A DNA stretch of 64,000 nt. Origin: a virus. This document shows positions 5,185 through 51,251 of this stretch, in pieces; positions within the stretch are counted from its first letter, which is position 1, and each line of letters opens with the position of its first letter. Made by a program: the position numbers and the translations under genes. The stretch is taken from positions 1-64,000 of IMG/VR virus record IMGVR_UViG_3300024054_000269. One strand, given 5' to 3'. Below the pieces are notes generated by a model. The model saw nothing but the letters and a program-made list of their open reading frames with translations. It was not told the origin of the DNA and did not search any database.

Positions 5185-6327
5185 GTGCGCATTGGGTTTG
5201 TATACGGTCGTTGGATTGCATCTGGTAAGAAATATAATTTTTCAGATCTATTCAATGATAAACGTGGCTTAACTGGGTCTGAACTTTCTTGTTTTAGTTT
5301 TGCTCGTGAGATGTCACGAAAAGGAAATAAGGTAAGTTTATTTCTTGATTCAGAAGCTAACTACCACGAATGGGAAAACATTAATATACGTCCGTTAGAT
5401 GATGTTACTAATGCAGAGCTTGATGTTGTTTATTCATGGAATGAAGCAGATGTTTTAAGGTTTGTTAGAAATAGTTCATTACGAATGGTTAATTTACAAA
5501 TCAATGATTTTGCTCATTGTATGTCTGGTTACGATGATTTTGTTGATATTTGGACTAGTCCATCTGAATCTCACAAAAACTATATTCTATCAACATTTAG
5601 GTATCATTTGTCAAATAAATGGAAAGTTCTTCCAAATGGGTGTGACTCAAGTCAATATGAATATAACATAAAAGTCCCTGGAAGAGTTATCTACGCTTCG
5701 TCACCAGATCGTGGTTTACATTGGCTTTTACAACAATGGCCAAAAATTAGAAAGTCAGTACCGAATGCAAATTTAAAGGTGTTTTATAGACTTAATCCAT
5801 GGATAGACCATTTTATCAATGTTTATAATTCTCCAAATAAGGGTTACCCAGAACTTGGTATGAGAGCTAGGTACATAAAGGAAGCTCTTAGGCGTTTATC
5901 TAGACATGGTGTTGAAGCTGTTGATTCAGTTAGTAGAAGACAAATTTCTAAAGAAATGTCAGAGGCTATGGTTTTGGCTTATCCATGTGATACAGTGTTT
6001 TATACAGAGGGTTTTTCTGTAACGACCTTAGAGGCCTGTGCAGCTGGTGTTGTTCCAGTCATAACTGATGTAGACGCACTCGGTCAAGTTTATTATGGAA
6101 ACGTACCGATGGTTAGATCACCAATTAAACATAATATTGATGAATTCACTGATTTTGTGATTAGAGGCCTTGTTGATGAGAAATTTGTAAAAGAAACAAC
6201 AGAAAAACTGAAAGAATTTTCAAAACAATACGAATGGACAATATTAGCCAATAAATTGGAACAGATAATAAAGGAAGCGCTAAGTGAGAATAGTACTAGT
6301 AATACCACCAAGCCCGTTTCTGCTTGA
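5185..6327 (+). CDS. GT4-type glycosyltransferase, paralogue of the upstream gene
   Basis: 380 residues from GTG 5185. The same block order as the upstream neighbour is visible: NDKRGLTGSELSCFSFAREM, then SSPDRGLHWLLQQWPKI, GMRARYIKEALRRL, and YTEGFSVTTLEACAAGVVPV. This is a GT-B enzyme with the usual donor-binding ExxxxxxxE helix. The gene overlaps the next one by 44 nt. Three glycosyltransferases with related GT-B domains in a row suggest stepwise assembly of one glycan (inference). Confidence 0.78.
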   Translation: MRIGFVYGRWIASGKKYNFSDLFNDKRGLTGSELSCFSFAREMSRKGNKVSLFLDSEANYHEWENINIRPLDDVTNAELDVVYSWNEADVLRFVRNSSLRMVNLQINDFAHCMSGYDDFVDIWTSPSESHKNYILSTFRYHLSNKWKVLPNGCDSSQYEYNIKVPGRVIYASSPDRGLHWLLQQWPKIRKSVPNANLKVFYRLNPWIDHFINVYNSPNKGYPELGMRARYIKEALRRLSRHGVEAVDSVSRRQISKEMSEAMVLAYPCDTVFYTEGFSVTTLEACAAGVVPVITDVDALGQVYYGNVPMVRSPIKHNIDEFTDFVIRGLVDEKFVKETTEKLKEFSKQYEWTILANKLEQIIKEALSENSTSNTTKPVSA

Positions 6328-8860
6328 TGATAGGGCTTTCCCATTTTTAGGGCCTTTGCAAATTTCAGCTTTGGCTCGTGAATTAGGTCACGACGTTAAT
6401 GTTGCTGATTTGACTGGATACAAGCAAAGAAACCCAAATGTTATTCATGCTAACTATGACGATGTTATGCATGAAGCTAAACAAAGACTTTCTGAACATG
6501 TAAAAGATGCTGATCTTGTTGGGTTTTATTCATTGGCGGCTCAACATCCGCAAGTTGTTAAACTTCATAATTTTGTTAAACAAAATTTTGGTTGTATTAC
6601 TGCGTTGGGCGGACCACATGCTAATACAACACCAGAGCGTTGTTTAGATGATGGATTTGATTATGTTGTTGTTGCAGATCAAGGTGGAGGAGGAGGGGAA
6701 CAAGGATTTTTAGAGTTGTTAAATAGAGTATCAAATAACAAAAAATATTTATCCAATGGGAGAATTATTAAAATACCAAGTCGTTCTAGTAATGAAATTT
6801 ATTTAAATGACAAGTGGCCGTTACCAGCACGTGATTTAATAGATTTAAATAGCTATTATTATTATATAAATGGAGAACGTGCAACTTCTATTGTATCAAC
6901 GACCGGCTGTCCATTTGCTTGCTCTTTCTCGGTAACAGGCGATACTCTAATATTTACCGATCGTGGGTTTGAAAGAATTGATTCCTTAATTGCAGGACAA
7001 CATGAAGTAAAAGCGTGTAATCATGGTGGCCATATTTTGAGGTATAAATCTGATAGAATTGTTTCTACCCATCTTGGCCAAAAAACTATAACATATGCAA
7101 TAAAGGAAGGAATTCGTCCAGTATTTCATATTAAGACAGATAATGGTCTTATTGTTAAGGCCACCAAAGAACACCTGTTTTTATCTGTTGATCATGGGCA
7201 ACTAATTTGGAAATCTGTTGGCAACTTGAAGATTGGTGACTGGCTTGTTTTGAAATCACCTGATCACAAATGGCCGCATGATTATGTTAAAATTCCTTCA
7301 CCCCATCCAATAACAAAATTTGCAAATGGTCCTCGTGTAGTCCCATCTTTTTTAACTGAGGATGTAGCATGGTTAACAGGTTTTATAATTGGTGACGGAT
7401 GTTTGCCAGCTGATGGTAGACCAGCAATTCATTTTAGTGTGACGCCAAAAACTCATTGGAAACTAATCAAAATTATTAAAAATTTGTTTGGCGTTCGTCT
7501 AAAAACATATAAAACGCATCATACTAAGAAATGTCGTCATGGTTGGGTTTATGGGCGAGCGATTTACGATTTTTTTGTTAAGTGTCTTGGTATATCACCA
7601 AGTTCAAAATTACGAATACCAGAATTGATCAGACAATCACCAAAATCGGTAGTAGAAAGTTTCATTGACGGGTTGTTAGATGCTGATGGATATAGTGGAA
7701 AAGGTAGAACGCCATATTTAACAACAGTTTCAAATGATTTGGCAGTCGAATTTTCTCAATTACTTTTAATGCTTGGGAAAACCCCGTATATACATCATTG
7801 TGGGCCATACGATTCTTTTTCTGCGCGGAGCCATTATCGAGTTGGATACTATGCTCATGACAGAATTCCAACAAAAAAAGCACTATATAAATCACCAAAA
7901 TCTGATGCTTGGTATTGGAGAACACCTAGAAAAAAAAGTGGGTTTTTAGGTGTTCGACGAACTACGTTAAATAAATCTGGTTTACTTCATCAATTGAATA
8001 TTGATGGGTATCATTATGTTAGAGTTTCTTCTATTACAACCGGAATTTCGGAGCCTGTGTATGATTTAGAAGTTTTAGGTGATCATAGCTTTCTTGCTAA
8101 TGGATTCATATCTCATAATTGTTCACATTGGGATGGTTACAGAAAATTAGAAATGAAATCTCCGAAAAGAATTAATGAAGAAATTAAATTAATAAAATCA
8201 AGTTATGGGTGGAATTCGATTATGTTTTATGATGATGAAATTAATTTAAGGTCCGATTTTAAAGACGAATTTCTTAATATGTTGAGAGATGCCAAAATAA
8301 CCTGGAGAGCTTTCTTTAAAAATGGGAAAAATTTGACGATTGAATCAATTTTTAAATTGATGGCTGAATCAGGCTGTGTTCAATTGTGTACTGGTGCAGA
8401 AAGTGCTGACCCAAAAATTCTTAGAGATACTAAAAAAGGTGCTACTTTAGAGGATAATACTAATTTTGTTAAATATTGTGTTAAATACGGAATAAACGCG
8501 AAGCTATTTACCCAGGTTGGTTTACCTGGCGAATCTCCAGAAACGATAGAGGCTTTGAGAATTTGGTTAATACAAATGGCGAATGAAGGACTTGCTGATG
8601 CTGATGTGTCAATTACGACGCCATATGAAGGAACACCTTTATTTAACAATCCAGAAAAATTCGACATACATTTTGATAAAGATAAATTAGATTACTCAAA
8701 TGACCAGATATTATATAAAGGAACGCCGGGCGAATACCAGTCTTGGGTGTGGCATGATAAACTATCAAAAGAAGATATAGTTTCAGCACGCCAAATGATT
8801 GAAGATGAATTTAGGAAGGCGGCTGGTCTTAAACCTCTGCTAGCCAAGGATGATGGATAA
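6284..8860 (+). CDS. B12-binding-type radical SAM enzyme interrupted by an intein
   Basis: 858 residues from GTG 6284, overlapping the upstream gene by 44 nt. The N-terminal ~190 residues look like a cobalamin-binding-type Rossmann domain (FLGPLQISALARELGHDVNV, LGGPHANTTPE). The radical SAM cluster motif is split: residues 209-213 give CPFAC, followed by SF. An intein of 397 residues then intervenes and Cys613 follows it. Joining the exteins restores CPFACSFC, the canonical CxxxCxxC that holds the [4Fe-4S] cluster. The C-extein carries FYDDEINL, FKNGKNLT and the barrel segment QVGLPGESPET. The mature product would be 461 residues. Related enzymes methylate or rearrange poorly reactive substrates; placement after sugar genes suggests a glycan or lipid modification (inference). 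Confidence 0.88.
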   Translation: MRIVLVIPPSPFLLDDRAFPFLGPLQISALARELGHDVNVADLTGYKQRNPNVIHANYDDVMHEAKQRLSEHVKDADLVGFYSLAAQHPQVVKLHNFVKQNFGCITALGGPHANTTPERCLDDGFDYVVVADQGGGGGEQGFLELLNRVSNNKKYLSNGRIIKIPSRSSNEIYLNDKWPLPARDLIDLNSYYYYINGERATSIVSTTGCPFACSFSVTGDTLIFTDRGFERIDSLIAGQHEVKACNHGGHILRYKSDRIVSTHLGQKTITYAIKEGIRPVFHIKTDNGLIVKATKEHLFLSVDHGQLIWKSVGNLKIGDWLVLKSPDHKWPHDYVKIPSPHPITKFANGPRVVPSFLTEDVAWLTGFIIGDGCLPADGRPAIHFSVTPKTHWKLIKIIKNLFGVRLKTYKTHHTKKCRHGWVYGRAIYDFFVKCLGISPSSKLRIPELIRQSPKSVVESFIDGLLDADGYSGKGRTPYLTTVSNDLAVEFSQLLLMLGKTPYIHHCGPYDSFSARSHYRVGYYAHDRIPTKKALYKSPKSDAWYWRTPRKKSGFLGVRRTTLNKSGLLHQLNIDGYHYVRVSSITTGISEPVYDLEVLGDHSFLANGFISHNCSHWDGYRKLEMKSPKRINEEIKLIKSSYGWNSIMFYDDEINLRSDFKDEFLNMLRDAKITWRAFFKNGKNLTIESIFKLMAESGCVQLCTGAESADPKILRDTKKGATLEDNTNFVKYCVKYGINAKLFTQVGLPGESPETIEALRIWLIQMANEGLADADVSITTPYEGTPLFNNPEKFDIHFDKDKLDYSNDQILYKGTPGEYQSWVWHDKLSKEDIVSARQMIEDEFRKAAGLKPLLAKDDG
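6929..8119 (+). other. Intein with LAGLIDADG homing endonuclease domain
   Basis: The in-frame insertion covers residues 216-612. It starts SVTGDTLIFTDRG, a block A with Ser instead of Cys at position 1. It ends VYDLEVLGDHSFLANGF followed by ISHN and then Cys+1, which is a normal block F/G with the terminal His-Asn. Two endonuclease blocks are seen: WLTGFIIGDG (about residue 362) and FIDGLLDADG (about residue 458), each with the catalytic acidic residue. The splice chemistry would be Ser1, Asn397, Cys+1. The element sits between the second and third cluster cysteines, so the enzyme cannot bind its cluster in the normal way before splicing. Confidence 0.92.
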
Positions 8861-18839: not shown

Positions 18840-19018
18840 ATGAATTCTGTAATCATCCAATAAGACACATAAACTGTTACTGTTATTAATCTATAATCAT
18901 CAAAAAATTTTAAATTCTGTAATCATCAAATTTTAACAGAAAATGTACTACTAAATAGTATTGGAATTAGATTGTAAATAAAATTTAATTGGTTGATTTG
19001 GGTGATTACAGAATTCAT
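18840..19018. repeat. 16-bp inverted repeat with extra direct copies
   Basis: ATGAATTCTGTAATCA (18840-18855) is repeated exactly in reverse complement at 19003-19018. Partial direct copies, AATTCTGTAATCATC and ATCTATAATCATC, lie between (about 18890-18930). The stretch 18801-18988 is otherwise gene-free. It adjoins the start of an HNH-GNAT gene and may be its recognition or insertion boundary. Confidence 0.6.
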
Positions 19019-19048
19019 AGAATGTTAATCACCCAGTATAGTCATAAA

Positions 19049-20671
19049 ATGGAAGCTCAAACATGTGTTGGTTGTTTTGTTGAAAAACCACTATCTGATT
19101 ATTTCAATAATGCAATTAAGAAAAATGGTAAAGATTCAAAATGCAAAGTATGTAGAAAATTAAGAAACAAAGAATGGTCAAAAGATAATGAAGAAAAATG
19201 CAAGTCAATACGGAAAGCATATTATGAAAAAACTTATTGGGATAATAGAGAAAAACGAAAAATAAGATATCAACTTGAACATGATAAAATATTAGAACAA
19301 AAACGTGAGTATGTGTCAAGAACAAGAGAAGAAAGGAAGAAATATCTAAAAGACTATAGAAATAGAAATAAAGATGAACTACAAATTCTCAGTAAATTGA
19401 ATAAACGATTCATAATTGATGGGGTATTGGATTTACTTGGTCCAATATGCATTGATTGTGGTGAATTGAACAGGCATTTTTTGACAGTTGACCATAAATT
19501 GAACAATGGGAACGAAGAGAGACACCTGAGCAGTATTGGATGGAAAAGGAGAATATTAAATGGTCAATCAAATAAAGATGATTATCAAATTTTATGTTTT
19601 AATTGCAATTTAGGTAAATATAGATTAAACCCAACAAACCATCAAAAAGGTAGACAAATTATTGGTGAATTAATACTATGTCCGAAATGTTTGTTTGAAA
19701 AAGATCGATCAGAATTTTCCAATGATTTATCTAAGAACAGATCTTGTTTTGAATGTCAGCGATTTATGGACACTTTTGTTAAAGTTAAAACAATAAATTT
19801 TGTTGGAGGTAAATGTGCATGTTGTGGAATGTCAGAACCACATAAATTAACAATTGATCATATTAAAGGTGATGGATGGTATAGAAGAAAATTTTTGAGT
19901 GAAGGTTCTGGCGTTGATTTTTATAAAAAAATCTTGAACCATACTATAGATTCTAAAGGTTTTCAAATCTTGTGTTGGAATTGCAATATGAGTAAACACA
20001 TAAATAATGGTGTTTGTTTGCACCAAATGCTATTTAAATCAGAAAAATTAAACAGAAATAGACCAACGCTGACCAAAAATAACAATAGCTCTGAAAATAA
20101 AGATTTTAATTTTATTAATATCACAATAATTAAGGGTTCTAACCTCCAGTCAAAGAAATTGTTCAAAGATTATCACTACAACAAATTCGGGCGCCCTCAA
20201 ACCGCTATCTATTCAGCCATTCTTGACGATAAAGTCATTGCAGCTGTCAAATTTTGTACGCCAGTTAGGTTAGAGGTTGCAACGACGCTTGGCTATGAAT
20301 ATAAAGATGTAATTGAGCTTGATCGATTTTGTATTCATCCTGAATATCAGAAAAAGAATTTTGCATCTTGGCTAATGTCGCGTGTGGTCAAACAGTTTAA
20401 AACTGACTTTCCTGACATCAAGGCTTTAGTTTCATTTGCTGATACTCGTTTTGGTCATGTTGGTACTATTTATAAGGCTTCAAATTGGAAGGAACTTGGT
20501 CAAACTTCACCAAGTTACGTCTACGTCGATCTTGATGGCAATGAAATAAACAAGAAAACTCTATATGGTTATGCAAAACGTAGAAACATGAAAGAACGTG
20601 AGTGTGCTGACCGGCTCGGTCTCAAGAAAGTGCCGACGCCGCCAAAAATCAAATATATTTACGAACTTTAA
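19049..20671 (+). CDS. HNH endonuclease fused to a Mom-like GNAT domain
   Basis: 540 residues from ATG 19049, which has a CAGTATAGT element just upstream; the frame is open back to 18989. An N-terminal Cys pair (CVGCF ... CKVC) is followed by an HNH/treble-clef unit (CIDCGELNRHFLTVDHKLNN ... ILCFNCNLGKYR). A second one follows (CACCGMSEPHKLTIDHIKGD ... ILCWNCNMSKH). The last ~180 residues are a GNAT fold like phage Mom DNA-modification proteins: YHYNKFG, ELDRFCIHPEYQ, ALVSFADTRFGHVGTIYKAS. Free-standing HNH proteins are typically homing endonucleases; fusion to a possible modification domain is unusual. It is one of four such GNAT-endonuclease proteins in the window. Confidence 0.75.
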   Translation: MEAQTCVGCFVEKPLSDYFNNAIKKNGKDSKCKVCRKLRNKEWSKDNEEKCKSIRKAYYEKTYWDNREKRKIRYQLEHDKILEQKREYVSRTREERKKYLKDYRNRNKDELQILSKLNKRFIIDGVLDLLGPICIDCGELNRHFLTVDHKLNNGNEERHLSSIGWKRRILNGQSNKDDYQILCFNCNLGKYRLNPTNHQKGRQIIGELILCPKCLFEKDRSEFSNDLSKNRSCFECQRFMDTFVKVKTINFVGGKCACCGMSEPHKLTIDHIKGDGWYRRKFLSEGSGVDFYKKILNHTIDSKGFQILCWNCNMSKHINNGVCLHQMLFKSEKLNRNRPTLTKNNNSSENKDFNFINITIIKGSNLQSKKLFKDYHYNKFGRPQTAIYSAILDDKVIAAVKFCTPVRLEVATTLGYEYKDVIELDRFCIHPEYQKKNFASWLMSRVVKQFKTDFPDIKALVSFADTRFGHVGTIYKASNWKELGQTSPSYVYVDLDGNEINKKTLYGYAKRRNMKERECADRLGLKKVPTPPKIKYIYEL

Positions 20672-21401: not shown

Positions 21402-21585
21402 GTTCCGGCTTTTTAGTTGCCGGACAAACTTTGATACCCCGTGAAGTCTCCGCCGTTCCACTTCTGGAGGTCGCGTTCCGGCTTTTGAGTTGCCGGACAA
21501 ACTTTGATACCTTGGCGTCGCCGAACGTTGGCTTCATGCCCTCCAACTCGTTCCGGCTTTTGAGTTGCCGGACAAACTTTGATAC
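21402..21585 (-). CRISPR. CRISPR mini-array: three 36-nt repeats, two spacers
   Basis: Repeats at 21402-21437, 21475-21510 and 21550-21585; spacers of 37 nt (21438-21474) and 39 nt (21511-21549). Read on the minus strand (the cas strand), the repeat starts GTATCAAAGTTTGT and ends in CCGGCAACTCAAAAGCCGG plus AAC. That is a 5-bp hairpin next to the spacer, as in type V crRNA handles. The repeat farthest from the gene (21402) has one mismatch, as expected for a terminal repeat. There is no room for a normal leader: the array starts 6 nt after the nuclease stop. Both spacers are about 60-65% GC by hand count, far above this genome. Confidence 0.93.
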
Positions 21586-21591
21586 AATCAT

Positions 21592-23553
21592 TCACGATGA
21601 AAGCGTTTCTAGTGCTGTTTCGTTGGCGTTTTGCGAGATATTCTTATTTGATTTCGTATTAACATTCCTTTCTTGGTTTTTCAGTTGTTTTTCAGATGGT
21701 CCGTTAGGCTTGCGAGAAACTCCTGGGTTTGGAGAACCATTTGATTGCTCGCAACGTTTCAACAAAATATGGCAGGCATTTTCATCTTGATCCCAATATT
21801 TTTCACAGTTTGAGCATTGGAGAACCAAAATTTCTTGATTTTTCCATTTATTAATGTGTCCGCACAAATGACATTCCCTGGTTGTATTCTCTGGATCAAC
21901 CTTTATAATATTTGGTTTACCAAAAGCTTGAATTAACTCTAAACGAAGCTCACCAGGTGATCCAATTGACATAATGCAATGCGTATAATCTTTCGGGTTT
22001 TCATTCTCTGGGGTCGAGTTTTTTATAAATTTTCTAAGATCCATATCCTCAACAACTAATGTTTTATATCTTTGTGATAAATTAGAAGCTATGTTTCTGT
22101 ACAAATGTTGACGATTCGATATTGTCTTTTTGCGTTGATCGGCTGCCCATTGAATCAAATGCCGGTCTTTACGGCGCCAAAGTTCTAAATAAAACAACAG
22201 TTGAGTGGCTTGGTCTTTAATCCCAGCCAAATTCGCCCACGTAAATATTTCGTCCTTTGTCGCAAATAAATCTAATTTAGACGAAAATCGATAATTTTTC
22301 CAATCAGAACAAATTTTAAAAATAAGATCTTTGTCTGATTCAGTTAACCATCGATTAACAATCGAGGCTAATTTGCCATGCATTCTCCACTGCGAGATAT
22401 TTAACGTTGCTTCTGGCATCCAATTTGGCAAACCTGAAAGTTTAGATTTAATGGCTTCTGACAAAATTGATAAAGCAACATTAAAAAATTCATCTGAGTA
22501 ACCAATTAATTTAGACGAATGCTCTAAAGCCGTTTGAATGTGATTAGGAACTAAAATTTCTTGCTTGAACCCATCATTTCCAACCACGAATCCGACTCTT
22601 ATACCATCAGGACGAACACGCCAACCAAGATCGAACGCTATTGCACCGCTAGTTGGCCTGACTTTTACGAATTCATTTGATTCGAGTGTTAGTTGTAGTT
22701 CAAATTCAGTATGAAGACCAATTCTACGGGTTGAAATCCAAGCCCAAGTAATGATTGCATCATCTGGCAATTTTCTATGCAAAGTTATTGGAAATTCGGC
22801 CCAAATTGGATTTCGTGACTTGTCTGAACCAACTCGAATTCTGACTTTTGACCTTGATAAAGGCGGCCTTACTTTTTGCTTACCATTTTTAATAAAATAA
22901 GCCTCAGGCGAAACCGGGTTGATCTGAATCATAGTTGATTTTTGATCAAAAATATCTTTTACGGTCGGTTTGTTTTGTAGCTGAACACCAATACGACCAT
23001 TTCCATCCCAACGGTGAAATTTTTGATCAGCTTGAGATGACTTGGAAGATTCTACCGCCTTTTCAATTAAGAGATAAGTTCCAAAATAAACTCCACATTT
23101 TGATCTAGCCAATTTAACTTTCTCAAGCATATCAGAAGTCAGTTTTTTATCGGCAGCTTCCAAAACTTCATTTGAATTTGCTTCATCACGTGCTTGTTTA
23201 AGTGACTCGTAAACTTGTTTCTTTTCGGCTTTCAAGTCGGAAATATGCTTTTGTAGTTCAAGATTTGAAACGCGTTTTCGAACTGATTTTCTAATTGACC
23301 TAAGTTCATCAATTGCTTTATCAAGCCTTTCTGAAACGTCTTTATATTTAACTTCAAATTCGGCTAAGTTTGGACACAATGAAGAACGCACAGTACGATA
23401 GGCTGAGCGTCTTTCTTGTTCTATTTGAACAAGATCGTTGTAATATTTATGTGCAAGTTTTAATTGCTCCCAAACAATTTGGGCATTTGAGGTTGGGCGT
23501 TTGCAACTAAATGACCAGACTCGGACTGGCAAATCTGACATTCTACGACGCAT
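21592..23553 (-). CDS. cas12m-like: Type V CRISPR effector, Cas12m-like
   Basis: 653 residues. From memory of mycobacterial Cas12m the match is co-linear: LAHKYYNDLVQIEQERR at 34-49, a coiled coil ~62-125, FHRWDGNGRIGVQLQ at 179-193, ITLHRKLPDDAIITWAW at 256-272, the RuvC-I strand AIAFDLGWR with Asp308, RuvC-II LVVEDMD with Glu502, a zinc ribbon with Cys561, Cys564, Cys580 and Cys583, and RuvC-III WDQDENA with Asp590. All three acidic residues are present, whereas studied Cas12m proteins have an altered RuvC site and silence transcription without cutting. The guide would come from the array 6 nt downstream. No cas1, cas2 or cas4 is nearby, as is usual for V-M and phage systems. A Ser/Asn-rich tail (about 604-653) extends beyond the zinc ribbon. 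TnpB is excluded by length, the N-terminal domain and the adjacent array. Confidence 0.88.
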   Translation of the reverse strand: MRRRMSDLPVRVWSFSCKRPTSNAQIVWEQLKLAHKYYNDLVQIEQERRSAYRTVRSSLCPNLAEFEVKYKDVSERLDKAIDELRSIRKSVRKRVSNLELQKHISDLKAEKKQVYESLKQARDEANSNEVLEAADKKLTSDMLEKVKLARSKCGVYFGTYLLIEKAVESSKSSQADQKFHRWDGNGRIGVQLQNKPTVKDIFDQKSTMIQINPVSPEAYFIKNGKQKVRPPLSRSKVRIRVGSDKSRNPIWAEFPITLHRKLPDDAIITWAWISTRRIGLHTEFELQLTLESNEFVKVRPTSGAIAFDLGWRVRPDGIRVGFVVGNDGFKQEILVPNHIQTALEHSSKLIGYSDEFFNVALSILSEAIKSKLSGLPNWMPEATLNISQWRMHGKLASIVNRWLTESDKDLIFKICSDWKNYRFSSKLDLFATKDEIFTWANLAGIKDQATQLLFYLELWRRKDRHLIQWAADQRKKTISNRQHLYRNIASNLSQRYKTLVVEDMDLRKFIKNSTPENENPKDYTHCIMSIGSPGELRLELIQAFGKPNIIKVDPENTTRECHLCGHINKWKNQEILVLQCSNCEKYWDQDENACHILLKRCEQSNGSPNPGVSRKPNGPSEKQLKNQERNVNTKSNKNISQNANETALETLSS

Positions 23554-24843: not shown

Positions 24844-25069
24844 TTTTGAAATTTGTCTGGCAATTCAAAGGCCAGAACGATGAGCCAAGGCGTTAAAGCT
24901 TGTTCGGTAGCCAAAAAACCGGAACACTTGTGCCCGTTTCTATCAAAGTTTGTTCGGTAACTCAAAAACCGGAACTACTGAGTACAAGTCATAAACCTAT
25001 CCGGTGGTTCAAAAACCGGAGCCACTTGTAGATGATTTAAGCTTGTCTAGTAGCTAAAAAACTAGAACC
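24844..25069 (+). repeat. Array of five diverged CRISPR-repeat hairpins with 10-14-nt gaps
   Basis: Five 36-nt units (about 24844-24879, 24891-24926, 24941-24976, 24988-25023, 25034-25069; the last may be off by 1) match the repeat of the 21.4 kb array, read on the plus strand. The third is 32/36 identical. Gaps are 11, 14, 11 and 10 nt, too short for ordinary spacers. Stems change in pairs: CTGGC/GCCAG, CGGT/ACCG, CCGGT/ACCGG and CTAGT/ACTAG against CCGGC/GCCGG in the CRISPR array, while the A-rich loop and final AAC/AGC persist. Retained pairing with changed bases shows selection on RNA structure. Possible roles are decoy repeats (RNA anti-CRISPR) or a non-coding regulator; a simply decaying array is less likely. 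Confidence 0.88.
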
Positions 25070-25078
25070 GAACCTGCA

Positions 25079-25570
25079 TCACGATTCAATCATTTCCTTT
25101 GATAATTGTTCATTAACAAATTTCAATAATTCTGATCTTACATATGCACCGGCTTTTCTTAATTTTGGTCTGTGGGTCAATCTTCGACGTCTTCTACATG
25201 CCGCGAAAAAATGACCAGAAGTTGGCTTTGTTGAATAATCAATATAGTATATGTTTTGGTTTTGGTTTTGGTTTTGGTCAGCGTGTATGTCAACGCGAAT
25301 TAATAATGAATATTTTGATATTAATATTTGTATCACGCCTAGTTTTTGATTTAATTTATATTTTATGATATGATTTCCGCATGTCTGATTCGGTATAACT
25401 GATAATGGGTGTTTGTCAATTGATTTTATGAATGCCTTTATTCCATTTTCATGTTTCATGTTTCTGATAAATGCCACGATTTTGATTTTGTAACAGTCAG
25501 CCTGATCTCTGTGCGTCGCCATCGTGGCTTCACGTGCGCGGAGGATTTGAGGCCCAAATTTATTGTACAT
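25079..25570 (-). CDS. Basic protein of unknown function with Gln-Asn repeat
   Basis: 163 residues on the minus strand, convergent with the hairpin array. It contains DQNQNQNQN, coded by a TTTTGG repeat at about 25254-25278, and a basic patch ACRRRRRLTHRPKLRKAG that could bind nucleic acid. It ends KEMIES, a member of the shared C-terminal tail group. Its position beside the repeat array is notable, but no function can be read. Confidence 0.5.
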   Translation of the reverse strand: MYNKFGPQILRAREATMATHRDQADCYKIKIVAFIRNMKHENGIKAFIKSIDKHPLSVIPNQTCGNHIIKYKLNQKLGVIQILISKYSLLIRVDIHADQNQNQNQNIYYIDYSTKPTSGHFFAACRRRRRLTHRPKLRKAGAYVRSELLKFVNEQLSKEMIES

Positions 25571-26008: not shown

Positions 26009-26328
26009 AAACTATTGAAGTTGAAGATACCGATTTTGTGATTGTTTATAAAGGACCAATGGTTGGTTTAACTAAATGTTATATGGGTAATAAACAATTA
26101 TCATTGATAACCGCTTTGAGCTTTAGTACATTAGGTAAAACTTTTTACCCAGAAGTAAAAATAGAATTTGCTGGTAACACTGGTAATTTCGACCCTGACA
26201 TCGTTGGTAACCAAATAATAAATAGAATTTTTAAATTTTATGATATATTTCATAAACTTCCAGGTTTTGAAATAGAGTCACCAATTTTGGATGATTATGT
26301 CAAAACTAAAGAAGTAGTCGATTCATGA
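26005..26328 (+). CDS. Small protein of unknown function
   Basis: About 107 residues if it starts at TTG 26005, which overlaps the preceding TGA; an upstream TTG 25993 is also in frame and no ATG is well placed. Beta-rich N-terminus (VIVYKGPMVGLTKC). It ends KEVVDS, a member of the shared tail group. It overlaps the convergent minus-strand gene by 6 nt. Confidence 0.5.
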   Translation: MKTIEVEDTDFVIVYKGPMVGLTKCYMGNKQLSLITALSFSTLGKTFYPEVKIEFAGNTGNFDPDIVGNQIINRIFKFYDIFHKLPGFEIESPILDDYVKTKEVVDS

Positions 26329-26727
26329 TTCTAGCAATTCTTTAGTATTTCTTATATCTCGTAATTCTTTCTCAATCCTCAATAATTGTTCCGGTTCAAG
26401 TGCTTCAACTAAACCATATTTTGGTTTGTATTCTTTTTTAAATTTATACGTTGGTGTTTTACCAAACATGTTCGTGACAAATTCTTCTGGTATGTTGTAT
26501 TTTCTTGCGAAATTTAGTGACTTTATTCTTAGTTCTTTATGCATTTGTCTTCTAAATATTTGATATTTTTGCTTTTTTGGAAGTTTGTTTATGCGTTTGA
26601 ACACATTCCAGTGGCTTCCGTAAAAATCAACAATAAAATCAGAATTGTCAGATATCCATATTACATTTTCAACTTTTAGGATAAGGTTCTTTGTAATTAT
26701 CTTCAAATATTTTTTAGTATCATCCAC
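26323..26727 (-). CDS. Basic protein of unknown function
   Basis: 134 residues, rich in Lys, Arg and aromatic residues (INKLPKKQKYQIFRRQMHKE), with no Cys cluster. It ends TKELLES, a member of the shared tail group on the opposite strand from most others. Its stop overlaps the stop of the plus-strand neighbour. A nucleic-acid-binding role is possible from charge alone. Confidence 0.5.
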   Translation of the reverse strand: MDDTKKYLKIITKNLILKVENVIWISDNSDFIVDFYGSHWNVFKRINKLPKKQKYQIFRRQMHKELRIKSLNFARKYNIPEEFVTNMFGKTPTYKFKKEYKPKYGLVEALEPEQLLRIEKELRDIRNTKELLES

Positions 26728-26763
26728 ATAAAATAATACACATGAAAGTATTAAATTTTCTGG

Positions 26764-26772
26764 TGTATTGTA
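26764..26772 (+). promoter_or_regulatory. Candidate promoter of the structured RNA
   Basis: TGTATTGTA ends 4 nt before the closing stem of the RNA at 26777. It matches the element seen before several protein genes, and its placement suggests transcription starts a few bases downstream. Confidence 0.45.
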
Positions 26773-26776
26773 ATGT

Positions 26777-26972
26777 GTCCCAGGCCAAACAGAGAAAGTC
26801 CTCTAAGGAGGTCGGTAAAGGTGGAACGAACGATCGAAAGATTGTTCATGGCACCACGCTCTTAAATCCTCAAACTCACTGGAGAGTCTAGGCAGCAACC
26901 ATTTGGTTCGCAGGTTAATAACCAAGTCTTGACTCAATGAAGGTGAGAAAAGCCGTAGTTTGGTCCTGGGAC
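26777..26972 (+). ncRNA. Structured non-coding RNA, class unknown
   Basis: A 196-nt gene-free stretch folds by eye as a closed multi-branch RNA. GTCCCAGG (26777-26784) pairs with CCTGGGAC (26965-26972), and CC/GG extends it with one bulge. Inside are CCTC-TAAG-GAGG, a GGTG/CACC helix enclosing GAACGATC-GAAA-GATTGTTC with a GNRA loop, and nested helices CTCAC/GTGAG, GAGTC/GACTC and TTGGTT/AACCAA. The GNRA loop and the upstream promoter-like motif favour the plus strand. It is not a tRNA or tmRNA and shows none of the RNase P, SRP or group I core sequences I can recall. It is more GC-rich than the surrounding DNA. Confidence 0.72.
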
Positions 26973-26973
26973 G

Positions 26974-27222
26974 CTATCTTCTCCAATTTGCATGTTTAAC
27001 AACTTCTTCATGTGTTTTGTTTTCTTGTTTACAAGCAGCTTCGTATATTATCTGTAATGATGTAATGACAAACCCGCTGGCTAATGACGCATGTATGCAT
27101 TTGTCCAAAACTTCCAGAACTTGAATAGCAGTTGGCGGGTTGGACCATTTACGAATTAATTTTTTCATTGAATCATCAAGCTGATCATCTGAAGCCTCCA
27201 ATAAGAGTTGACCGAAATTCAT
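26974..27222 (-). CDS. Small helical protein of unknown function
   Basis: 82 residues, all-helical by composition (QVLEVLDKCIHASLASGFVI). Its stop lies 2 nt beyond the end of the structured RNA on the opposite strand, so the two transcripts would converge. Its start is divergent from the wHTH gene at 27261 with a 38-nt AT-rich gap. No family is recognised. Confidence 0.5.
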   Translation of the reverse strand: MNFGQLLLEASDDQLDDSMKKLIRKWSNPPTAIQVLEVLDKCIHASLASGFVITSLQIIYEAACKQENKTHEEVVKHANWRR

Positions 27223-27260: not shown

Positions 27261-27704
27261 ATGGCTAATGAATTGATCAAAACAATAGGTAAGAGGGTGT
27301 CTAAAAATTTAGTTGAAAATGTAAAAATTCGGTTAACCGAGTTGGAAGTCGAGAAAACTAAATTGTTTAATATATTGGACGTATTTAGTAATTCTGGGCA
27401 ATCGTTAAAACGAAGAAAACCACGCTCTAAAGTTAGTGCACGAAGGAAGAAATCTCGTGTCAAACAAAACACACGAAAAACCAAAAAATTAACTAAAAAG
27501 GCGCACAAGCCTGGTCAAAACGGCATGTATAATAAAGTTGTGGCTTATTTAAAAGATAATCCTGGTTCATCTCTTCAAGACATATCAAAGGCCATGAAAG
27601 GCCATACATATGGTCAAGTAACCAGTTGTATAACATACTTAAAAAAGCGTAAGCGAATTAATATTGTTTCAAGAGCAAGGCCTTTTAAATATAATGCTAA
27701 TTGA
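27261..27704 (+). CDS. Basic DNA-binding protein with winged-helix-like C-terminus
   Basis: 147 residues in three parts: an N-terminal helical/coiled-coil segment (~1-50), a very basic linker (~52-90, KPRSKVSARRKKSRVKQNTR), and a C-terminal helix-turn-helix-like domain (YNKVVAYLKDNPGSSLQDIS ... VTSCITYLKKRKRI). This oligomerisation-linker-DNA-binding layout resembles nucleoid-associated or H-NS-like proteins without sequence identity. It could bind phage or host DNA and regulate it (inference). Confidence 0.6.
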   Translation: MANELIKTIGKRVSKNLVENVKIRLTELEVEKTKLFNILDVFSNSGQSLKRRKPRSKVSARRKKSRVKQNTRKTKKLTKKAHKPGQNGMYNKVVAYLKDNPGSSLQDISKAMKGHTYGQVTSCITYLKKRKRINIVSRARPFKYNAN

Positions 27705-34643: not shown

Positions 34644-34686
34644 TTTCATTTATAATTTTACTTTTATTGATCCGTATAGTTTAGTG

Positions 34687-36237
34687 ATGCTTACGCCAGT
34701 ACCTGGTCAAAACCTGCCATCAAGAGGTTCCAACAAGTTAATTTATTTTGATTGTTCATGTGGCAGGAAAAACAATGCAATAAAATGGAAATATTACACG
34801 CTTGGTCACACAAAAACATGCGGAAAATGTGGTCTAAAACCAGTTAGTTTTTGGGAAAATTCAAAATTTGGAAAGCTTAAATTAAAAGAACCGATTGAAA
34901 CTTATGAATTCTCAAATAAGAAAGCTGATTGGGTTTGTGATTGTGGCAATACAACTAGAGTTCAAATAAATTTAGTAACAACTGGAAACACAAACTCTTG
35001 TGGTAAATGCAATGTTCATGTTGCTTCTTATTGGGAAAATTCAAAATTTGGGAAATTAAAGTTAAAAACGCCAATTAATATTCACAAATTTTCTGGCCAA
35101 AAAGCTGATTGGGTTTGTGATTGTGGTAGAGAAGCAAATATTATAATCCACAATGTAACAAGAGGCCTTCAAAAAACATGTGGTAAATGCAATTTGTTAA
35201 GTGCTGAAGATTTAGCAAACAAAAAATTTGGAAAATTGAAAATAAAAACTCCGACAGTTATTGATCTTATTTTAAACACAGAAAAACCAATTCGTACGTT
35301 GTGTCTTTCGTGTGGAAATGAATATAAACCTGTACTAAACAATGTAAGACTTGGCAGATCTTTAACTTGTGGGTGTTCATCAAAAATTTCATCTTCACAA
35401 ATTGACATAGCAAATTTTATCAAATCGTTTGGTGTTGGCGTTGTTTCTGAATATAAGATTGACGGATTAAAATATGACATTTTTGTTCCAGATGTTAATC
35501 TATTGATTGAATATAATGGTCTAAAATGTCATTCGATGCCAGAGTCAAAAAAGAGAGACATATTTAAATATCAAAATGCACTAAATAATGATTTCGATTA
35601 TATCATGATTTTTGGGGATGAATGGCTGAGAAATAAACAGAAAGTTAAAAATTACTTAATTAACAGACTTTGTTTGGGCAGACCAAAGTCTGTTAGACCA
35701 TCTAAATGTTCAATAAACAATATAAACTCAGATTTGGTTAACGAATTTTATGAAAAATTCCATTATATAGGTGCTGTTAAAGCCAAAATAAATTATGGTG
35801 TGTTTTTTGATGGCAGACTTATTGCGTGTGTTTCTTTTAAACGACCAACTAGGCAATCAAAATACGACTATGAATTGATTCGAATGGCTTCTGACCCAGA
35901 ATTTAGGATTCATGGTATTTGGTCAAAAATCATAAAACAATTTTTATCTAATAATGAGTGTTCTTCAATTGTTTCTTTCTCAGACAATCGACTTTTCTCA
36001 GGGAAAGTTTATGAAAAAATTGGTTTCAAATTTGATGGTGAAATTCGACCTGATTATTATTGGGTAAAAGGTAACAGACGATTTCACAAGTCAGGTCTTA
36101 GGAAAAAAGATTATGAAAAGACATCAGGGTTTACTGAGTACCAGCTCCGTGAATCACAGGGGTATTCTAGAATTTGGGATTTAGGAAAGAAGCGTTGGGT
36201 TTTTGACTGTAATCAAGCCTTTAATTCAACAATTTAA
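34687..36237 (+). CDS. Zinc-repeat / Vsr-like endonuclease / GNAT fusion
   Basis: 516 residues from ATG 34687 (GTG 34684 adjacent). Residues ~15-230 hold four repeated zinc modules of about 60 residues, each with CxCG...CGKC (for example WVCDCGNTTRV ... NSCGKCNV). A Vsr/EDxHD-type nuclease domain follows: VVSEYKIDGLKYDIFVPD and NLLIEYNGLKCHS, then a Lys/Asp segment to FGDEWL. The last ~180 residues form a GNAT-like domain (FHYIGAVKAKINYGVFF, IRMASDPEFRIHGIWSKI, SFSDNRLFSGKVYEKIGFK). Vsr-like proteins include known homing endonucleases. It lies just before the sheath gene. It is strongly similar to the 49296-51251 protein. Confidence 0.75.
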   Translation: MLTPVPGQNLPSRGSNKLIYFDCSCGRKNNAIKWKYYTLGHTKTCGKCGLKPVSFWENSKFGKLKLKEPIETYEFSNKKADWVCDCGNTTRVQINLVTTGNTNSCGKCNVHVASYWENSKFGKLKLKTPINIHKFSGQKADWVCDCGREANIIIHNVTRGLQKTCGKCNLLSAEDLANKKFGKLKIKTPTVIDLILNTEKPIRTLCLSCGNEYKPVLNNVRLGRSLTCGCSSKISSSQIDIANFIKSFGVGVVSEYKIDGLKYDIFVPDVNLLIEYNGLKCHSMPESKKRDIFKYQNALNNDFDYIMIFGDEWLRNKQKVKNYLINRLCLGRPKSVRPSKCSINNINSDLVNEFYEKFHYIGAVKAKINYGVFFDGRLIACVSFKRPTRQSKYDYELIRMASDPEFRIHGIWSKIIKQFLSNNECSSIVSFSDNRLFSGKVYEKIGFKFDGEIRPDYYWVKGNRRFHKSGLRKKDYEKTSGFTEYQLRESQGYSRIWDLGKKRWVFDCNQAFNSTI

Positions 36238-41365: not shown

Positions 41366-43021
41366 ATGTTGGATGTTGAAAAATATTCAATCTTGACTGA
41401 TAGTGGAAACAAAAAAATTATATTTAAATGTGAATTTTGTTCAAACAAATTTGAAACATTGTACAAGACTTTCTTACGTAGCAAACATGGTGCTTGTATC
41501 AAATGTAGATCATTAGCATCTGCATATTCACAAACCAATTCATCTAAAAATAAACATGAATTTTATCTTGAAAGAAGAAAAAACATAAATAAAAATCTGT
41601 TTAATATTGAAGCTACTATTGAAAAATTTGGTTATTCACCATTAGATCTGGTTAATGGTTCTAAGAAAAGAATAATAGCTAAATGTGAATTTTGTTTATT
41701 AGATTTCGAAACTCAATTTGACGTAATCAATAACGAATCAAATTTAATTGCTTGCAAAAAATGTGACGCTATTGCGTCTTCATATTCCAGGTCTAAAAGC
41801 ATTGAAAACAAACATGAATTTTATTTATCAAAAAGACCGAAATTAAACATTGATTGTCTTGATATTGAGGCTACAATTGAAAAATTTAATTATTCACCAC
41901 TGGATTTAAGCACATATTCTGCGAAAATTATAGTGGCTAAATGCGCATATTGTAGCAAAAAACTTGAAATTAGAATGTCTAAATATTCGCTTCGCGAAGG
42001 AAGGATTACGTGTTGGGGGTGTATGAGGAAAAAGACTGTCGAAACGCTAAAATTGAAATATGGTGTTGAATGCACATTGCAAATACCATCTGTTCTTAGC
42101 AAATTATCTAACCCAAAAACCGAGCAAATAGTCGAATCAGTGTTGAAAACTAGGTATAAATTAGATTATGTTCGCAATCATTCTATTGGTATTTATTCTT
42201 TTGATTTTTTCGTACCAAGTTGCAATTTGTTAATTGAATGTCATGGCGATTATTTTCATGACTTCAAAAAATTTGGTTATAGCGGGACACCAAAAGACAG
42301 AGCTAAGTCAACCTATGTTGAAAAATACACAAATCATAAATTAATTTGGGTTTATGAGCATGAAATTCACATAGGTAGAATCAATAAAATATTAGATTAT
42401 CATATACATAAGATTCTTGAACCACAATTGAATGTTGATTTGAAATATATAGAATTTAAACAAATAAATAACAAAGACGCACATACATTTTTATCTCAAT
42501 ATCATTACATTGGCAATCTCGGAACTGTTGCGACTTCGTTTGGAGCATTTTTCGGCGAAGTATTGATTGCTGTGTGTGTTTTTGGTGGTATTACACGTCA
42601 TCAATCAATTAAAAAGATTAACAAATTCTGTTCAACATCTTTTGGTCCAAAAGATGTTAGGGAATTAAGAAGATTTTGTATTAAACCGAACATCATTACT
42701 AAAAATATGGCAAGTTTCTGTTTGAAAAAATTTATTGATTTATATAATGATTACAATTCAAACATTAAAGCAATAATAAGCTTTTCAGATCCAACTGTAG
42801 GAGACATAGGAACTATATACAAAGCTTCAAATTGGAAACAAATGTCAGATTCAATCAAATCATATCATTATGTAGATCCAAAAACTAATCGTCAGATTCA
42901 TAAAAAGACAGTGTGGGACATGGCTAAAAGCAATCATATGAAAGAACAAGACTTTGTAAATAGTTGTGGATTGATAAAGGTTGTGGAATTGCCAAAAAAT
43001 GTCTGGCTGAAATTATTTTAG
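41366..43021 (+). CDS. Zinc-repeat / Vsr-like endonuclease / Mom-like GNAT fusion
   Basis: 551 residues from ATG 41366, 37 nt after the sheath stop. Three N-terminal zinc modules (FKCEFCSNKFETL ... CIKC; AKCEFCLLDFET ... CKKC; AKCAYCSKKLEI ... CWGC) are interspersed with repeated IEATIEKF.YSPLDL segments. A Vsr/EDxHD-type nuclease follows: SIGIYSFDFFVPSCNLLIEC and HGDYFHDF. The C-terminal GNAT domain (RELRRFCIKPNIITKNMASF, IISFSDPTVGDIGTIYKASN) is close to that of the HNH protein at 19049 and to phage Mom. It flanks the sheath gene opposite the 34687 element. Confidence 0.75.
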   Translation: MLDVEKYSILTDSGNKKIIFKCEFCSNKFETLYKTFLRSKHGACIKCRSLASAYSQTNSSKNKHEFYLERRKNINKNLFNIEATIEKFGYSPLDLVNGSKKRIIAKCEFCLLDFETQFDVINNESNLIACKKCDAIASSYSRSKSIENKHEFYLSKRPKLNIDCLDIEATIEKFNYSPLDLSTYSAKIIVAKCAYCSKKLEIRMSKYSLREGRITCWGCMRKKTVETLKLKYGVECTLQIPSVLSKLSNPKTEQIVESVLKTRYKLDYVRNHSIGIYSFDFFVPSCNLLIECHGDYFHDFKKFGYSGTPKDRAKSTYVEKYTNHKLIWVYEHEIHIGRINKILDYHIHKILEPQLNVDLKYIEFKQINNKDAHTFLSQYHYIGNLGTVATSFGAFFGEVLIAVCVFGGITRHQSIKKINKFCSTSFGPKDVRELRRFCIKPNIITKNMASFCLKKFIDLYNDYNSNIKAIISFSDPTVGDIGTIYKASNWKQMSDSIKSYHYVDPKTNRQIHKKTVWDMAKSNHMKEQDFVNSCGLIKVVELPKNVWLKLF

Positions 43022-48656: not shown

Positions 48657-48804
48657 CGGTCCAAAGTGGACTTTCGTTATAATTGAAAAAGACGGTGTTG
48701 TCGTTGATTCCCCGCCAATTTCAAAGTGGGCGATCGGAAAACCACTGGAAATGGTTCTTGTTTGGTGGGCCAAGAAGGGTGCCGATAAAATAACTAAACT
48801 TTAA
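48637..48804 (+). CDS. 55-residue protein, unknown
   Basis: An ATG at 48637 inside the end of the preceding gene opens a frame to TAA 48802-48804. The peptide begins MNWIRISGPKWTFVIIEKDG and ends GADKITKL. Good codon content and the operon-style overlap support it as real. It converges with the HNH gene (11-nt overlap at the stops). Confidence 0.55.
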   Translation: MNWIRISGPKWTFVIIEKDGVVVDSPPISKWAIGKPLEMVLVWWAKKGADKITKL

Positions 48805-49315
48805 CTTGGTCGATCTTTAATTGATGTTGCTTCCAGATTTTTATTCTATGACAATTAACGCATATTAAATCGCACTTTTCAATCTCCAGTATAATCTTTT
48901 CTTTTGAGTATTTGCTGTTTTTCATTTGTGATACTGGTTTAAATTTTTTCTTTTGGTTTCTATGATCGAAATTCAAACTCCAATATCTAAATTGATGGCC
49001 GCAATTTGAACATCTGCGGTTATCCTTGATTGAATTCAACCAATTTGTAAGTTCTACGAGCTTGTTGCTAACGCATGTGTTTTGCACGTTTTGATTAAAT
49101 TTATTACTGTTACAATTAGCACAAATAAGATGATGTTTTCTTATTTTGTTTAAAATGGTTTTTGTACTGACCGTATACATTTTGTGAAGTGATATTTGTA
49201 CATCAAATTCCATTGCTGAAAAATGGAATTTTCCACCACATTTATAACATGGCCCTGATTTCAAATTTTGAACAAAATTTCTTATTCTGTTTCGTTTAAT
49301 TCTTGTTTTCAACAT
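48794..49315 (-). CDS. HNH endonuclease
   Basis: 173 residues on the minus strand. It has two HNH/treble-clef units: CYKCGGKFHFSAMEFDV ... LICANCNSNKF and CSNCGHQFRYWSLNFDHRNQ ... LICVNCHRIKIW; the second retains the catalytic Asp-His (FDH) and looks active, while the first lacks the His. Its ATG overlaps the last 20 nt of the Vsr-GNAT gene upstream on the same strand, so two different nuclease types are translationally coupled. It is probably a homing endonuclease. Confidence 0.8.
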   Translation of the reverse strand: MLKTRIKRNRIRNFVQNLKSGPCYKCGGKFHFSAMEFDVQISLHKMYTVSTKTILNKIRKHHLICANCNSNKFNQNVQNTCVSNKLVELTNWLNSIKDNRRCSNCGHQFRYWSLNFDHRNQKKKFKPVSQMKNSKYSKEKIILEIEKCDLICVNCHRIKIWKQHQLKIDQVKV

Positions 49316-51251
49316 TAATAACCCATCTTTTTTTACCTAGATCCCAAATTTTGTAATAACCTTGAGCTTCTCTCAATTGAGTTTCAGTTTTTCCGCTTAA
49401 TTTCTCTTCTCCTTTCTTTCTTAGGCTTGATTTATGGTATCTTTTTTTGTTCTTTGTCCAGAAATAGTCAGAGCTAATTAAGCCATCAAATTTAAATCCT
49501 AATTTTTCATAAATTTTACCAGAAAACAATCTATTGTCAGAAAAACTAACTATAGATTTTAAATTATGCTCTAGAACAAACATGTTTAGCAATTTAGTCC
49601 AAATCCCGTGGACTCTGAAATTTGGATGTGAAACCATTCGAACTAATTCATAATCATGTTTAGATTGTCTAGTTGGATTTTTGAATGACATGCACGCAAT
49701 TAATTGATTTTTATACCAAGCGCCATAATTTAATTTTGATTTGGCTTTTCCTATATAATGAAACTGTTCATACAAAAAATCAGCTTCTTGTAATGATGTT
49801 TTACGCAAATCACATTGTTTTGGTCTAATGCTTATCGGTTTAAATTTATTTAACCGATTTTTTACCAAATTTTTTATTGATTCTTTCCTATATTTCCATT
49901 CATCTTCATATACAACCAAATAACTGTAGTCATGTTTAATAGCTAAATCATATTTAATTTTGTCTCGTTTTTTTGATTCTTCTGAACCATGCCACTTTAA
50001 ACCATGAAATTCAATCAATAAATTATTTTTTGGAACAAATATGTCATATTTATATCCAAATGTTTTATACTCAGATTCTACATCAATATTTAATGATTTA
50101 ATAAATTTCATCAATTCGCCCTGCCCAACTGAGAGTGAATTGTTTGATGTACACCCGCATGTTAAAGATTCACCAGTTTTTATTCCATGGAGTCTTGGGT
50201 AGTATATGTTTTTACAAACTTCGCATATAGCTTTAAACGGTTTTGATACTGATGTTATAGTTTCAAGGGCCTCAATACCGCCAAATATTTTTCCAGGTTG
50301 GACTGGGCATTTTAATGATTTTATTGCAATTTGATTTTCTATATACCAATTCTTAATGTTGTTTGAACACTTACCACAAGATTTTGTGTACCCTGAACAT
50401 ACGCTTGTTATACTTATCAATGCTTCATTTCCACAATCACATAACCATTCAATTTTTTTGTCTGAATGCTTCTTTATTGATTGTTGATGTTTGATTCTTA
50501 ATTTACCAAATTTTATCTCTAATGATTGTGTTGCTGAAATTTCGTTACATTTATTACATGTCTTTTTATATCCAGAAAATACTTCTCGTATCTTTAATAA
50601 TTCTTTTCTACCACATTTACAAATAAATAATTCTTTTGAATTTGATACTTTGTTTATTATAGTTTTGTCGCCTACATAAACAAAACTATTTATCTTGTCA
50701 CCATTTTTGATGTTTACTTCTTCACATTTGTTACATGTTGAATTTGGTGAATATCTGTTAAATTTTCTTGTATATGTTTTCCCGCAATTGCATAGGAAAT
50801 CAAATTTTTTATTTGTTCCAGCTGTCCATGAATTTGGTAGATTTTTATCCACCAAATTCGGCAGTTTCAATAGCCAGTCTTCTTTTTTCTTCGACTCATA
50901 ATGTGGTTTAATAATAATTATATTATGTCGTAAACATCCACAACTTTTGATTTTCCCACTCAAAACATGATGAGGTTTAATTAATTTTTCTTTTCCACAA
51001 TCACATTTCCACAAATATTTTTCTGTTAATTTTATTACATCTTCAATGTTGGTAATAAGTTTCAGGCTGTTGAATTTTGTTTGATTTGTTTTTTTCCACA
51101 AAAACAATTTGCATGAACCACAGCTTTTACTAGCTCCAGTTGCGAAATTTGCCCAGTTTGTTTTGAATTTATTACCACAATCGCAAACGAATTCAATTCG
51201 TTGTTTTGAATATTTATTACTTGGCAATTCAGAAGTAATTGGCGTTATCAT
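49296..51251 (-). CDS. Zinc-repeat / Vsr-like endonuclease / GNAT fusion, largest copy
   Basis: 651 residues on the minus strand. At least five or six N-terminal zinc modules are seen, for example FVCDCGNKFKTNWANF ... SCGSCKLF, WKCDCGKEKLIKPHHV, FLCNCGKTYTRK, FICKCGRKELLK and WLCDCGNEALIS ... SCGKCSNN. A Vsr/EDxHD-type domain follows (VESEYKTFGYKYDIFVPKNN, LLIEFHGLKWHG, VVYEDEW), then the GNAT-like domain (FHYIGKAKSKLNYGAWY, VRMVSHPNFRVHGIWTKLLN, SFSDNRLFSGKIYEKLGFKF). The C-terminal half is nearly co-linear with the 34687 protein. It stands between the tail accessory genes and the tube gene. The variable module count suggests evolving DNA specificity. Confidence 0.77.
   Translation of the reverse strand: MITPITSELPSNKYSKQRIEFVCDCGNKFKTNWANFATGASKSCGSCKLFLWKKTNQTKFNSLKLITNIEDVIKLTEKYLWKCDCGKEKLIKPHHVLSGKIKSCGCLRHNIIIIKPHYESKKKEDWLLKLPNLVDKNLPNSWTAGTNKKFDFLCNCGKTYTRKFNRYSPNSTCNKCEEVNIKNGDKINSFVYVGDKTIINKVSNSKELFICKCGRKELLKIREVFSGYKKTCNKCNEISATQSLEIKFGKLRIKHQQSIKKHSDKKIEWLCDCGNEALISITSVCSGYTKSCGKCSNNIKNWYIENQIAIKSLKCPVQPGKIFGGIEALETITSVSKPFKAICEVCKNIYYPRLHGIKTGESLTCGCTSNNSLSVGQGELMKFIKSLNIDVESEYKTFGYKYDIFVPKNNLLIEFHGLKWHGSEESKKRDKIKYDLAIKHDYSYLVVYEDEWKYRKESIKNLVKNRLNKFKPISIRPKQCDLRKTSLQEADFLYEQFHYIGKAKSKLNYGAWYKNQLIACMSFKNPTRQSKHDYELVRMVSHPNFRVHGIWTKLLNMFVLEHNLKSIVSFSDNRLFSGKIYEKLGFKFDGLISSDYFWTKNKKRYHKSSLRKKGEEKLSGKTETQLREAQGYYKIWDLGKKRWVINVENKN

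What the first reader, a model, noticed from the sequence alone, without database searches (positions are those of the whole stretch)
26777..26972. Unclassified structured RNA in the accessory region
196 nt with a long closing helix, a GNRA-capped hairpin and three nested helices, GC-richer than its surroundings and preceded by a promoter-like TGTATTGTA. It does not match known RNA classes I can recall. It could be a host-takeover RNA, a ribozyme or a guide-scaffold RNA.
Basis: partly seen in the sequence, partly recalled or inferred. Interest (0 to 1): 0.72.

Follow-up and report, generated by a model that had tools for sequence, protein, structure and literature searches.

The report
Orphan kink-turn RNA in jumbo phage
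A large environmental phage carries, between two small genes, one 196-base stretch that very probably makes a tightly folded non-coding RNA with a kink-turn; it matches no known RNA family, no relative was found, and what it does is unknown.

Summary
In detail: 26777-26972 is a real, well-defined RNA fold on the + strand. Folding energy is z -4.7, and no shuffle of 200 folds as well. The ensemble is far tighter than shuffles on the + strand and ordinary on the - strand. It is the only one of its strict form in the whole 182-kb record on either strand, and 2 of 5000 shuffles of the element have one. [quoted passage not shown]

No relative was found in phages, plasmids, E. coli, 17 related or comparison phage records, or about 1200 bacterial genomes, so covariation cannot be tested. 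The upstream neighbour (26974-27222, -) is a complete gene; in related phages the next gene overlaps its stop, with no RNA between. So this is a recent or lineage-specific intergenic RNA, not an intron.

Most likely it is a stand-alone, trans-acting structured RNA bound by a kink-turn protein; a stranded guide-RNA scaffold is the main rival. Function is inferred, not shown.

The parts
26777..26972 (+). whole structured RNA (196 nt)
   Evidence: z -4.7; low ensemble diversity and entropy on + only; single copy in the 182,302-base record
26777..26790 (+). closing helix P1, 5' strand (pairs with 26958-26972, one bulged U at 26964)
   Evidence: pair probabilities 0.96-1.0
26958..26972 (+). closing helix P1, 3' strand
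26791..26811 (+). small 5' hairpin: AGAG/CUCU (26791-26794 with 26801-26804) or, nearly equal in energy, CCUC/GAGG (26800-26803 with 26808-26811); fold of this part not settled
26820..26855 (+). hairpin GGUG..CACC with an 8-bp upper helix (26828-26835/26840-26847), one G-U pair and the GAAA tetraloop 26836-26839
   Evidence: upper helix pair probability 0.99-1.0
26875..26947 (+). kink-turn domain: NC helix 26875-26880/26942-26947, C helix 26884-26888/26931-26935, upper helix, then a three-way junction with two hairpins (26895-26911, 26913-26923)
   Evidence: most pair probabilities 0.94-1.0; folds alone at -23.4 kcal/mol
26881..26883 (+). kink-turn, non-bulged strand G3n-G2n-A1n (UGGA-GAG)
   Evidence: strict kink-turn scan: only hit in 2 x 182 kb
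26936..26941 (+). kink-turn, bulged strand: loop AAU (L1-L3), then G1b-A2b-A3b
   Evidence: -1b:-1n C:G, 3b:3n A:G, 4b:4n G:U as in drum and RAGATH-18 (PMC8191799)
26973..26992 (+). 3' flank, antisense to the end of the neighbouring gene; would be the guide if the element were a TnpB-type guide RNA (hypothesis only)
   Evidence: sequence; no support beyond position
26974..27222 (-). neighbour gene (82 aa), complete; its stop codon is 1 base from the RNA
   Evidence: relatives in L185 (56% identity, full length) and in Rhizobium phages
26323..26727 (-). neighbour ORF (134 aa, GTG start, no Shine-Dalgarno-like site; frame open up to the RNA edge), no known relative

Best explanation
It is a stand-alone, trans-acting structured non-coding RNA of the phage, transcribed from the + strand. 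Shown by computation: one defined multi-branched fold sealed by a 14-bp helix, with a GAAA-capped hairpin and a kink-turn next to a three-way junction. Inferred: the kink-turn folds on its own in magnesium and/or is clamped by a host or phage protein of the L7Ae/YbxF type, bending the arm so that the domains pack against each other. The RNA would then work as a folded ribonucleoprotein or scaffold, as suspected for other phage-borne ornate RNAs, rather than by an open base-pairing guide. It was gained as a lineage-specific insertion between two - strand genes. The biological target is not known.
For: Fold significance and strand: (+ strand ensemble diversity and entropy far below shuffles, - strand not); A-rich unpaired bases. 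Kink-turn: only strict one in the record, 2 of 5000 element shuffles; its letters obey the published folding rules (3n=G, -1b:-1n C:G, 4b:4n G:U; PMC8191799). Stand-alone rather than cis: no gene begins directly 3' of it on + (next likely one at 27261) and no terminator-like site is near. Not an intron: the neighbour gene is complete and no Rfam intron model matches. Inserted: in L185 and in Rhizobium phages the following gene overlaps the neighbour's stop, leaving no room for an RNA.
Against: No relative exists in anything searched, so no covariation test. No transcript data. The promoter-like sequence is not better than chance. No partner protein is identified. About 0.3% of windows in the record reach the same adjusted energy. 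The fold of element nt 15-98 is not unique.
Confidence: 0.42

Rival explanations
1. Stranded guide-RNA scaffold (omega/reRNA-like): the RNA once belonged to a TnpB-type nuclease element. The 14-bp helix ends the scaffold, and the bases after 26972, antisense to the end of the neighbour gene, are the guide, which would direct cutting of uninserted neighbour loci in other phages.
For: Kink-turn core UGGA-GAG / C-NAU-GAAGG matches the RAGATH-18 kink-turn oligo GUCUAUGAAGGCUGGAGAC except in the variable loop and helices. RAGATH-18 RNAs are guides of IS607 TnpB with a 187-nt scaffold (PMC11061315). The element ends 1 base from the neighbour's stop codon, and loci without it exist. A Cas12/TnpB-type protein lies 3.2 kb away.
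Against: RAGATH-18 does not match even at E 10. The reported reRNA has its RAGATH-18 part followed by a 64-nt 3' motif, whereas here only 25 nt follow the kink-turn domain. No other TnpB-like protein was seen in the record and the Cas12m-like effector has its own CRISPR repeats, which the RNA does not resemble. The Cas12m-bearing phage Rctr197k has no such RNA.
Confidence: 0.15
2. Cis-acting riboswitch-like aptamer controlling a + strand gene.
For: Closing helix, multi-branch body and kink-turn are common in bacterial riboswitches (general knowledge).
Against: No expression platform or terminator-like site. The next likely + gene starts 288 bases downstream with a - strand gene in between. The 14-bp closing helix is long for a switching helix. 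No Rfam riboswitch matches.
Confidence: 0.1
3. Ribozyme or catalytic RNA of an undescribed class.
For: Compact fold, GNRA loop, kink-turn, A-rich junctions.
Against: No match to any Rfam ribozyme or intron family; no interrupted gene; no reverse transcriptase in the record.
Confidence: 0.08
4. Functional strand is -: an intercistronic leader or processing element between the 26974-27222 and 26323-26727 genes, or a small insertion in the 5' end of the latter.
For: It lies between two - strand ORFs and fills the gap. The frame of 26323-26727 is open up to the RNA edge with no start before GTG 26727, and an ATG overlapping the first gene's end could be its original start.
Against: The - strand ensemble is no better defined than shuffles; loops would be U-rich; the kink-turn exists only on +.
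Confidence: 0.12
5. No function: a decayed palindrome or a chance fold.
For: Singleton; 22 of 7434 windows reach its adjusted energy; 14-bp closing helices occur about 1.3 times per shuffled genome.
Against: Energy, ensemble tightness on one strand only and a strict kink-turn coincide.
Confidence: 0.08

Closest known systems
RAGATH-18 RNA / IS607 TnpB reRNA (PMC8191799, PMC11061315)
   Same: kink-turn with -1b:-1n C:G, 3b:3n A:G, 4b:4n G:U and the words GAAGG / CUGGAG; similar total size (187-nt scaffold)
   Different: no covariance-model match; three-way junction beyond the C helix; only 25 nt follow the kink-turn domain against a 64-nt 3' motif; no IS607 TnpB next to it
drum RNA (Weinberg and Breaker set; kink-turn in PMC8191799)
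   Same: same kink-turn key positions
   Different: no Rfam match; the published table has only the kink-turn, not enough to compare the rest
ROOL and GOLLD phage RNAs (PMC12286853)
   Same: phage-borne ornate RNAs of unknown function without a partner gene
   Different: those are far larger and often near tRNA islands; no Rfam match; the only tRNA of this record is near its far end
Kink-turn riboswitches (SAM-I, lysine, T-box; from memory)
   Same: closing helix, multi-branch body, kink-turn
   Different: no Rfam match, no downstream gene or terminator
Retron msr-msd RNA (from memory)
   Same: long helix joining the two ends
   Different: no reverse transcriptase in the record

Membership tests
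Kink-turn (structural motif) | 3-nt bulge followed by tandem G:A and A:G pairs between a C helix and an NC helix | tested here: met
   26884-26888/26931-26935, loop 26936-26938, G26939:A26883, A26940:G26882, NC helix 26875-26880/26942-26947; strict scan, only hit in the record
Kink-turn (structural motif) | folds with Mg2+ or binds L7Ae-type protein | not testable with these tools
   predicted from 3n=G, C:G and G:U rules
RAGATH-18 / IS607 reRNA | match to the Rfam covariance model | tested here: not met
   no hit at E<=10 on 79, 219 or 351 bases, assuming the family is among the 4227 models
RAGATH-18 / IS607 reRNA | lies downstream of an IS607 TnpB | tested here: not met
   only Cas12/TnpB-like protein seen in the record is the 653-aa Cas12m-like one at 21592-23553 on the other strand
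drum RNA | match to an Rfam model | tested here: not met
   no hit at E<=10, assuming the family is among the 4227 models
Cas12m (type V-M) guide RNA | shares the CRISPR repeat or pairs with it | tested here: not met
   best local match is reached by 12% of shuffles; no anti-repeat
Retron | reverse transcriptase nearby | tested here: not met
   PF00078 absent from the 182-kb record
IS110 bridge RNA | IS110 recombinase | tested here: not met
   PF01548 absent
IS200/IS605 element | Y1 transposase | tested here: not met
   PF01797 absent
IscB/HEARO | Rfam HEARO match or RRXRR protein | tested here: inconclusive
   no Rfam match; PF14239 absent but the control rang nowhere
Group I intron | splits a gene; intron core | tested here: not met
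   neighbour gene complete; no Intron_gpI match on either strand
tRNA/tmRNA | ARAGORN call | tested here: not met
   none in the window

The most novel reading that the evidence does not exclude
An undescribed class of phage kink-turn RNA, possibly a guide-type scaffold inserted exactly at the neighbour gene's stop codon, whose 3' flank would direct a Cas12/TnpB-type nuclease acting in trans to copies of that locus lacking the insert.
Probability: 0.1. Interest if true: 0.85.

Novelty: new variant of a known kind. Interest (0 to 1): 0.5.

Why it matters
Phages carry several elaborate RNAs whose work is unknown, and few are small enough to study easily. A 196-nt RNA with a canonical kink-turn, one copy and clean edges gives a defined object for probing, pull-down and structure. 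If relatives turn up in metagenomes it would found a new RNA family; if it binds a Cas12/TnpB-type protein it would extend RNA-guided systems to stranded phage scaffolds.

Tried and rejected
Intron splitting the two - strand ORFs: rejected, because the 26974-27222 gene is complete in relatives. RNase P: a resemblance of AGAGAAAGUCC to its conserved region was seen by eye, but the partner strand does not pair and no Rfam match appears. Retron, IS110 bridge RNA, IS200/IS605: enzymes absent. CRISPR repeat or anti-repeat: no. Relatives by exact words in viral contigs and genomes: only chance hits, none fits the covariance model. Single-sequence covariance models R1 (whole) and R2 (kink-turn domain) against related phages, Rctr197k and one Rhizobium phage, and R1 against about 1200 bacterial genomes: nothing. 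blastn against phages, plasmids and E. coli: nothing. Structure prediction of the 26323-26775 ORF: pLDDT 39, useless. Other low-energy windows of the record: of eight inspected, mostly hairpins or terminators, none a similar compact RNA.

Full report
Observation. The window is the first 64,000 bases of a 182,302-base virus record. At 26777-26972 the + strand folds at -71 kcal/mol; 200 dinucleotide shuffles give -49.9 +/- 4.5, none as low. The two ends form a 14-bp helix with one bulged U. Ensemble diversity is 18 against 45 +/- 14 in shuffles and pairing entropy 0.40 against 0.99 (about 1 and 0 of 150 shuffles as low). On the - strand the energy is also low, but diversity and entropy look like shuffles. 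Thirty-four of 66 unpaired bases on + are A. The + strand is therefore the functional RNA if either is.

How special. By an energy adjusted for composition, 22 of 7434 windows in the record are as low. Of the eight low-energy places inspected, most are hairpins or terminators and none resembles this compact branched fold. The closing helix alone is not rare enough to count. The promoter-like word upstream is at chance level.

Kink-turn. Element positions 105-107 (GGA) and 160-165 (AAUGAA) form a canonical kink-turn: C helix GAGUC/GACUC, loop AAU, G:A and A:G, then A:G and a G:U pair leading into the NC helix CUCACU/GGUGAG. A strict scan (GA/GA, a C-G pair next to the loop, 5-bp helices on both sides) finds this one and no other on both strands of the 182-kb record. 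Six shuffled genomes gave 1, 2, 0, 0, 0 and 0, and 2 of 5000 shuffles of the element had one. The scan was written after the motif was seen in the fold, but its rules are those of the published consensus (PMC8191799). [quoted passage not shown]

What it is not. No Rfam family matches at gathering score in the record except one tRNA-Gly near its far end, nor at E<=10 on 79, 219 or 351 bases apart from chance lncRNA fragments. RAGATH-18 RNAs are guides of IS607 TnpB (PMC11061315), so that family was considered seriously. The model does not match and no IS607 TnpB was found. Membership is therefore not claimed; the similarity is that of the kink-turn alone. Reverse transcriptase, IS110 and Y1 transposases are absent.

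Neighbours. The gene at 26974-27222 (-) has a full-length relative in a 222-kb phage (L185, 56% identity) and shorter ones in Rhizobium phages. In both, the next gene overlaps its stop codon, so those loci have no RNA there. Here one base separates that stop codon from the 3' end of the RNA. The ORF at 26323-26727 (-) has no relative in the phage or viral collections and no start codon between its GTG and the RNA edge, so the RNA may have displaced its 5' end; this was not shown. In 21 related phage loci the flanking structural genes are kept, but genes of this stretch other than the homing-endonuclease type were not found.

Relatives. None found: blastn in phages, plasmids and E. coli, word scans in viral contigs and genomes, and covariance models from the single sequence in 15 related phage records, Rctr197k, a Rhizobium phage and about 1200 genomes of three phyla. 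A model built from one sequence is weak, so distant relatives can be missed.

Mechanism. Shown by computation: fold, strand, kink-turn, single copy, intergenic site. Inferred: that it is transcribed alone, that a kink-turn protein binds it, and that it acts in trans as a folded RNP. The main rival is a stranded guide scaffold; it predicts binding to a Cas12/TnpB-type protein and a variable 3' tail.

Side result. The window also holds a Cas12m-like effector (21592-23553, -; PADLOC E 3e-90) with a three-repeat CRISPR array at its 3' end and an inverted, degenerate second array whose spacers are only about 11-15 nt. Phage Rctr197k has a distant homologue (31% identity) likewise flanked by arrays. 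No link to the RNA was found.

Noticed in passing
window 21592-23553 (-), 21402-21585: Phage-encoded Cas12m/V-M-like effector (653 aa) with a CRISPR array of three 36-nt repeats directly at its 3' end; two spacers of 37 and 39 nt with 62-65% GC in a 35% GC phage, no clear protospacer in phage records.
   Followed up: partly
window 24880-25085: Second, inverted array of four degenerate copies of the same repeat with spacers of only about 11-15 nt; hairpin stems differ in sequence but stay paired (TCTAG/CTAGA, CCGG/CCGG). Could be short-guide crRNAs for a binding-only Cas12m, or decay.
   Followed up: partly
L142 (KX853510.1, Virus Rctr197k): Distant Cas12m homologue (31% identity) annotated as similar to transposase, also with CRISPR arrays on both sides; different repeats.
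   Followed up: partly
window 18840-19018: Another inverted repeat (14 bp or more, 179 nt span) between a structural gene and a homing-endonuclease-like ORF, with direct repeats beside it.
   Followed up: no
window 6284-8860: Radical-SAM-like gene apparently interrupted by an intein, judged by eye from the translation.
   Followed up: no
window 18989-20671, 34684-36237, 41366-43021, 48794-51251: Several large HNH/homing-endonuclease-like ORFs between structural genes, judged by eye from the translations; the 18989 one has relatives in several related phages.
   Followed up: no
window 26323-26727 (-): 134-aa ORF whose frame is open to the RNA edge without a start codon; an overlapping ATG in the end of the upstream gene would give a longer N-terminus if about 197 nt were absent.
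   Followed up: partly
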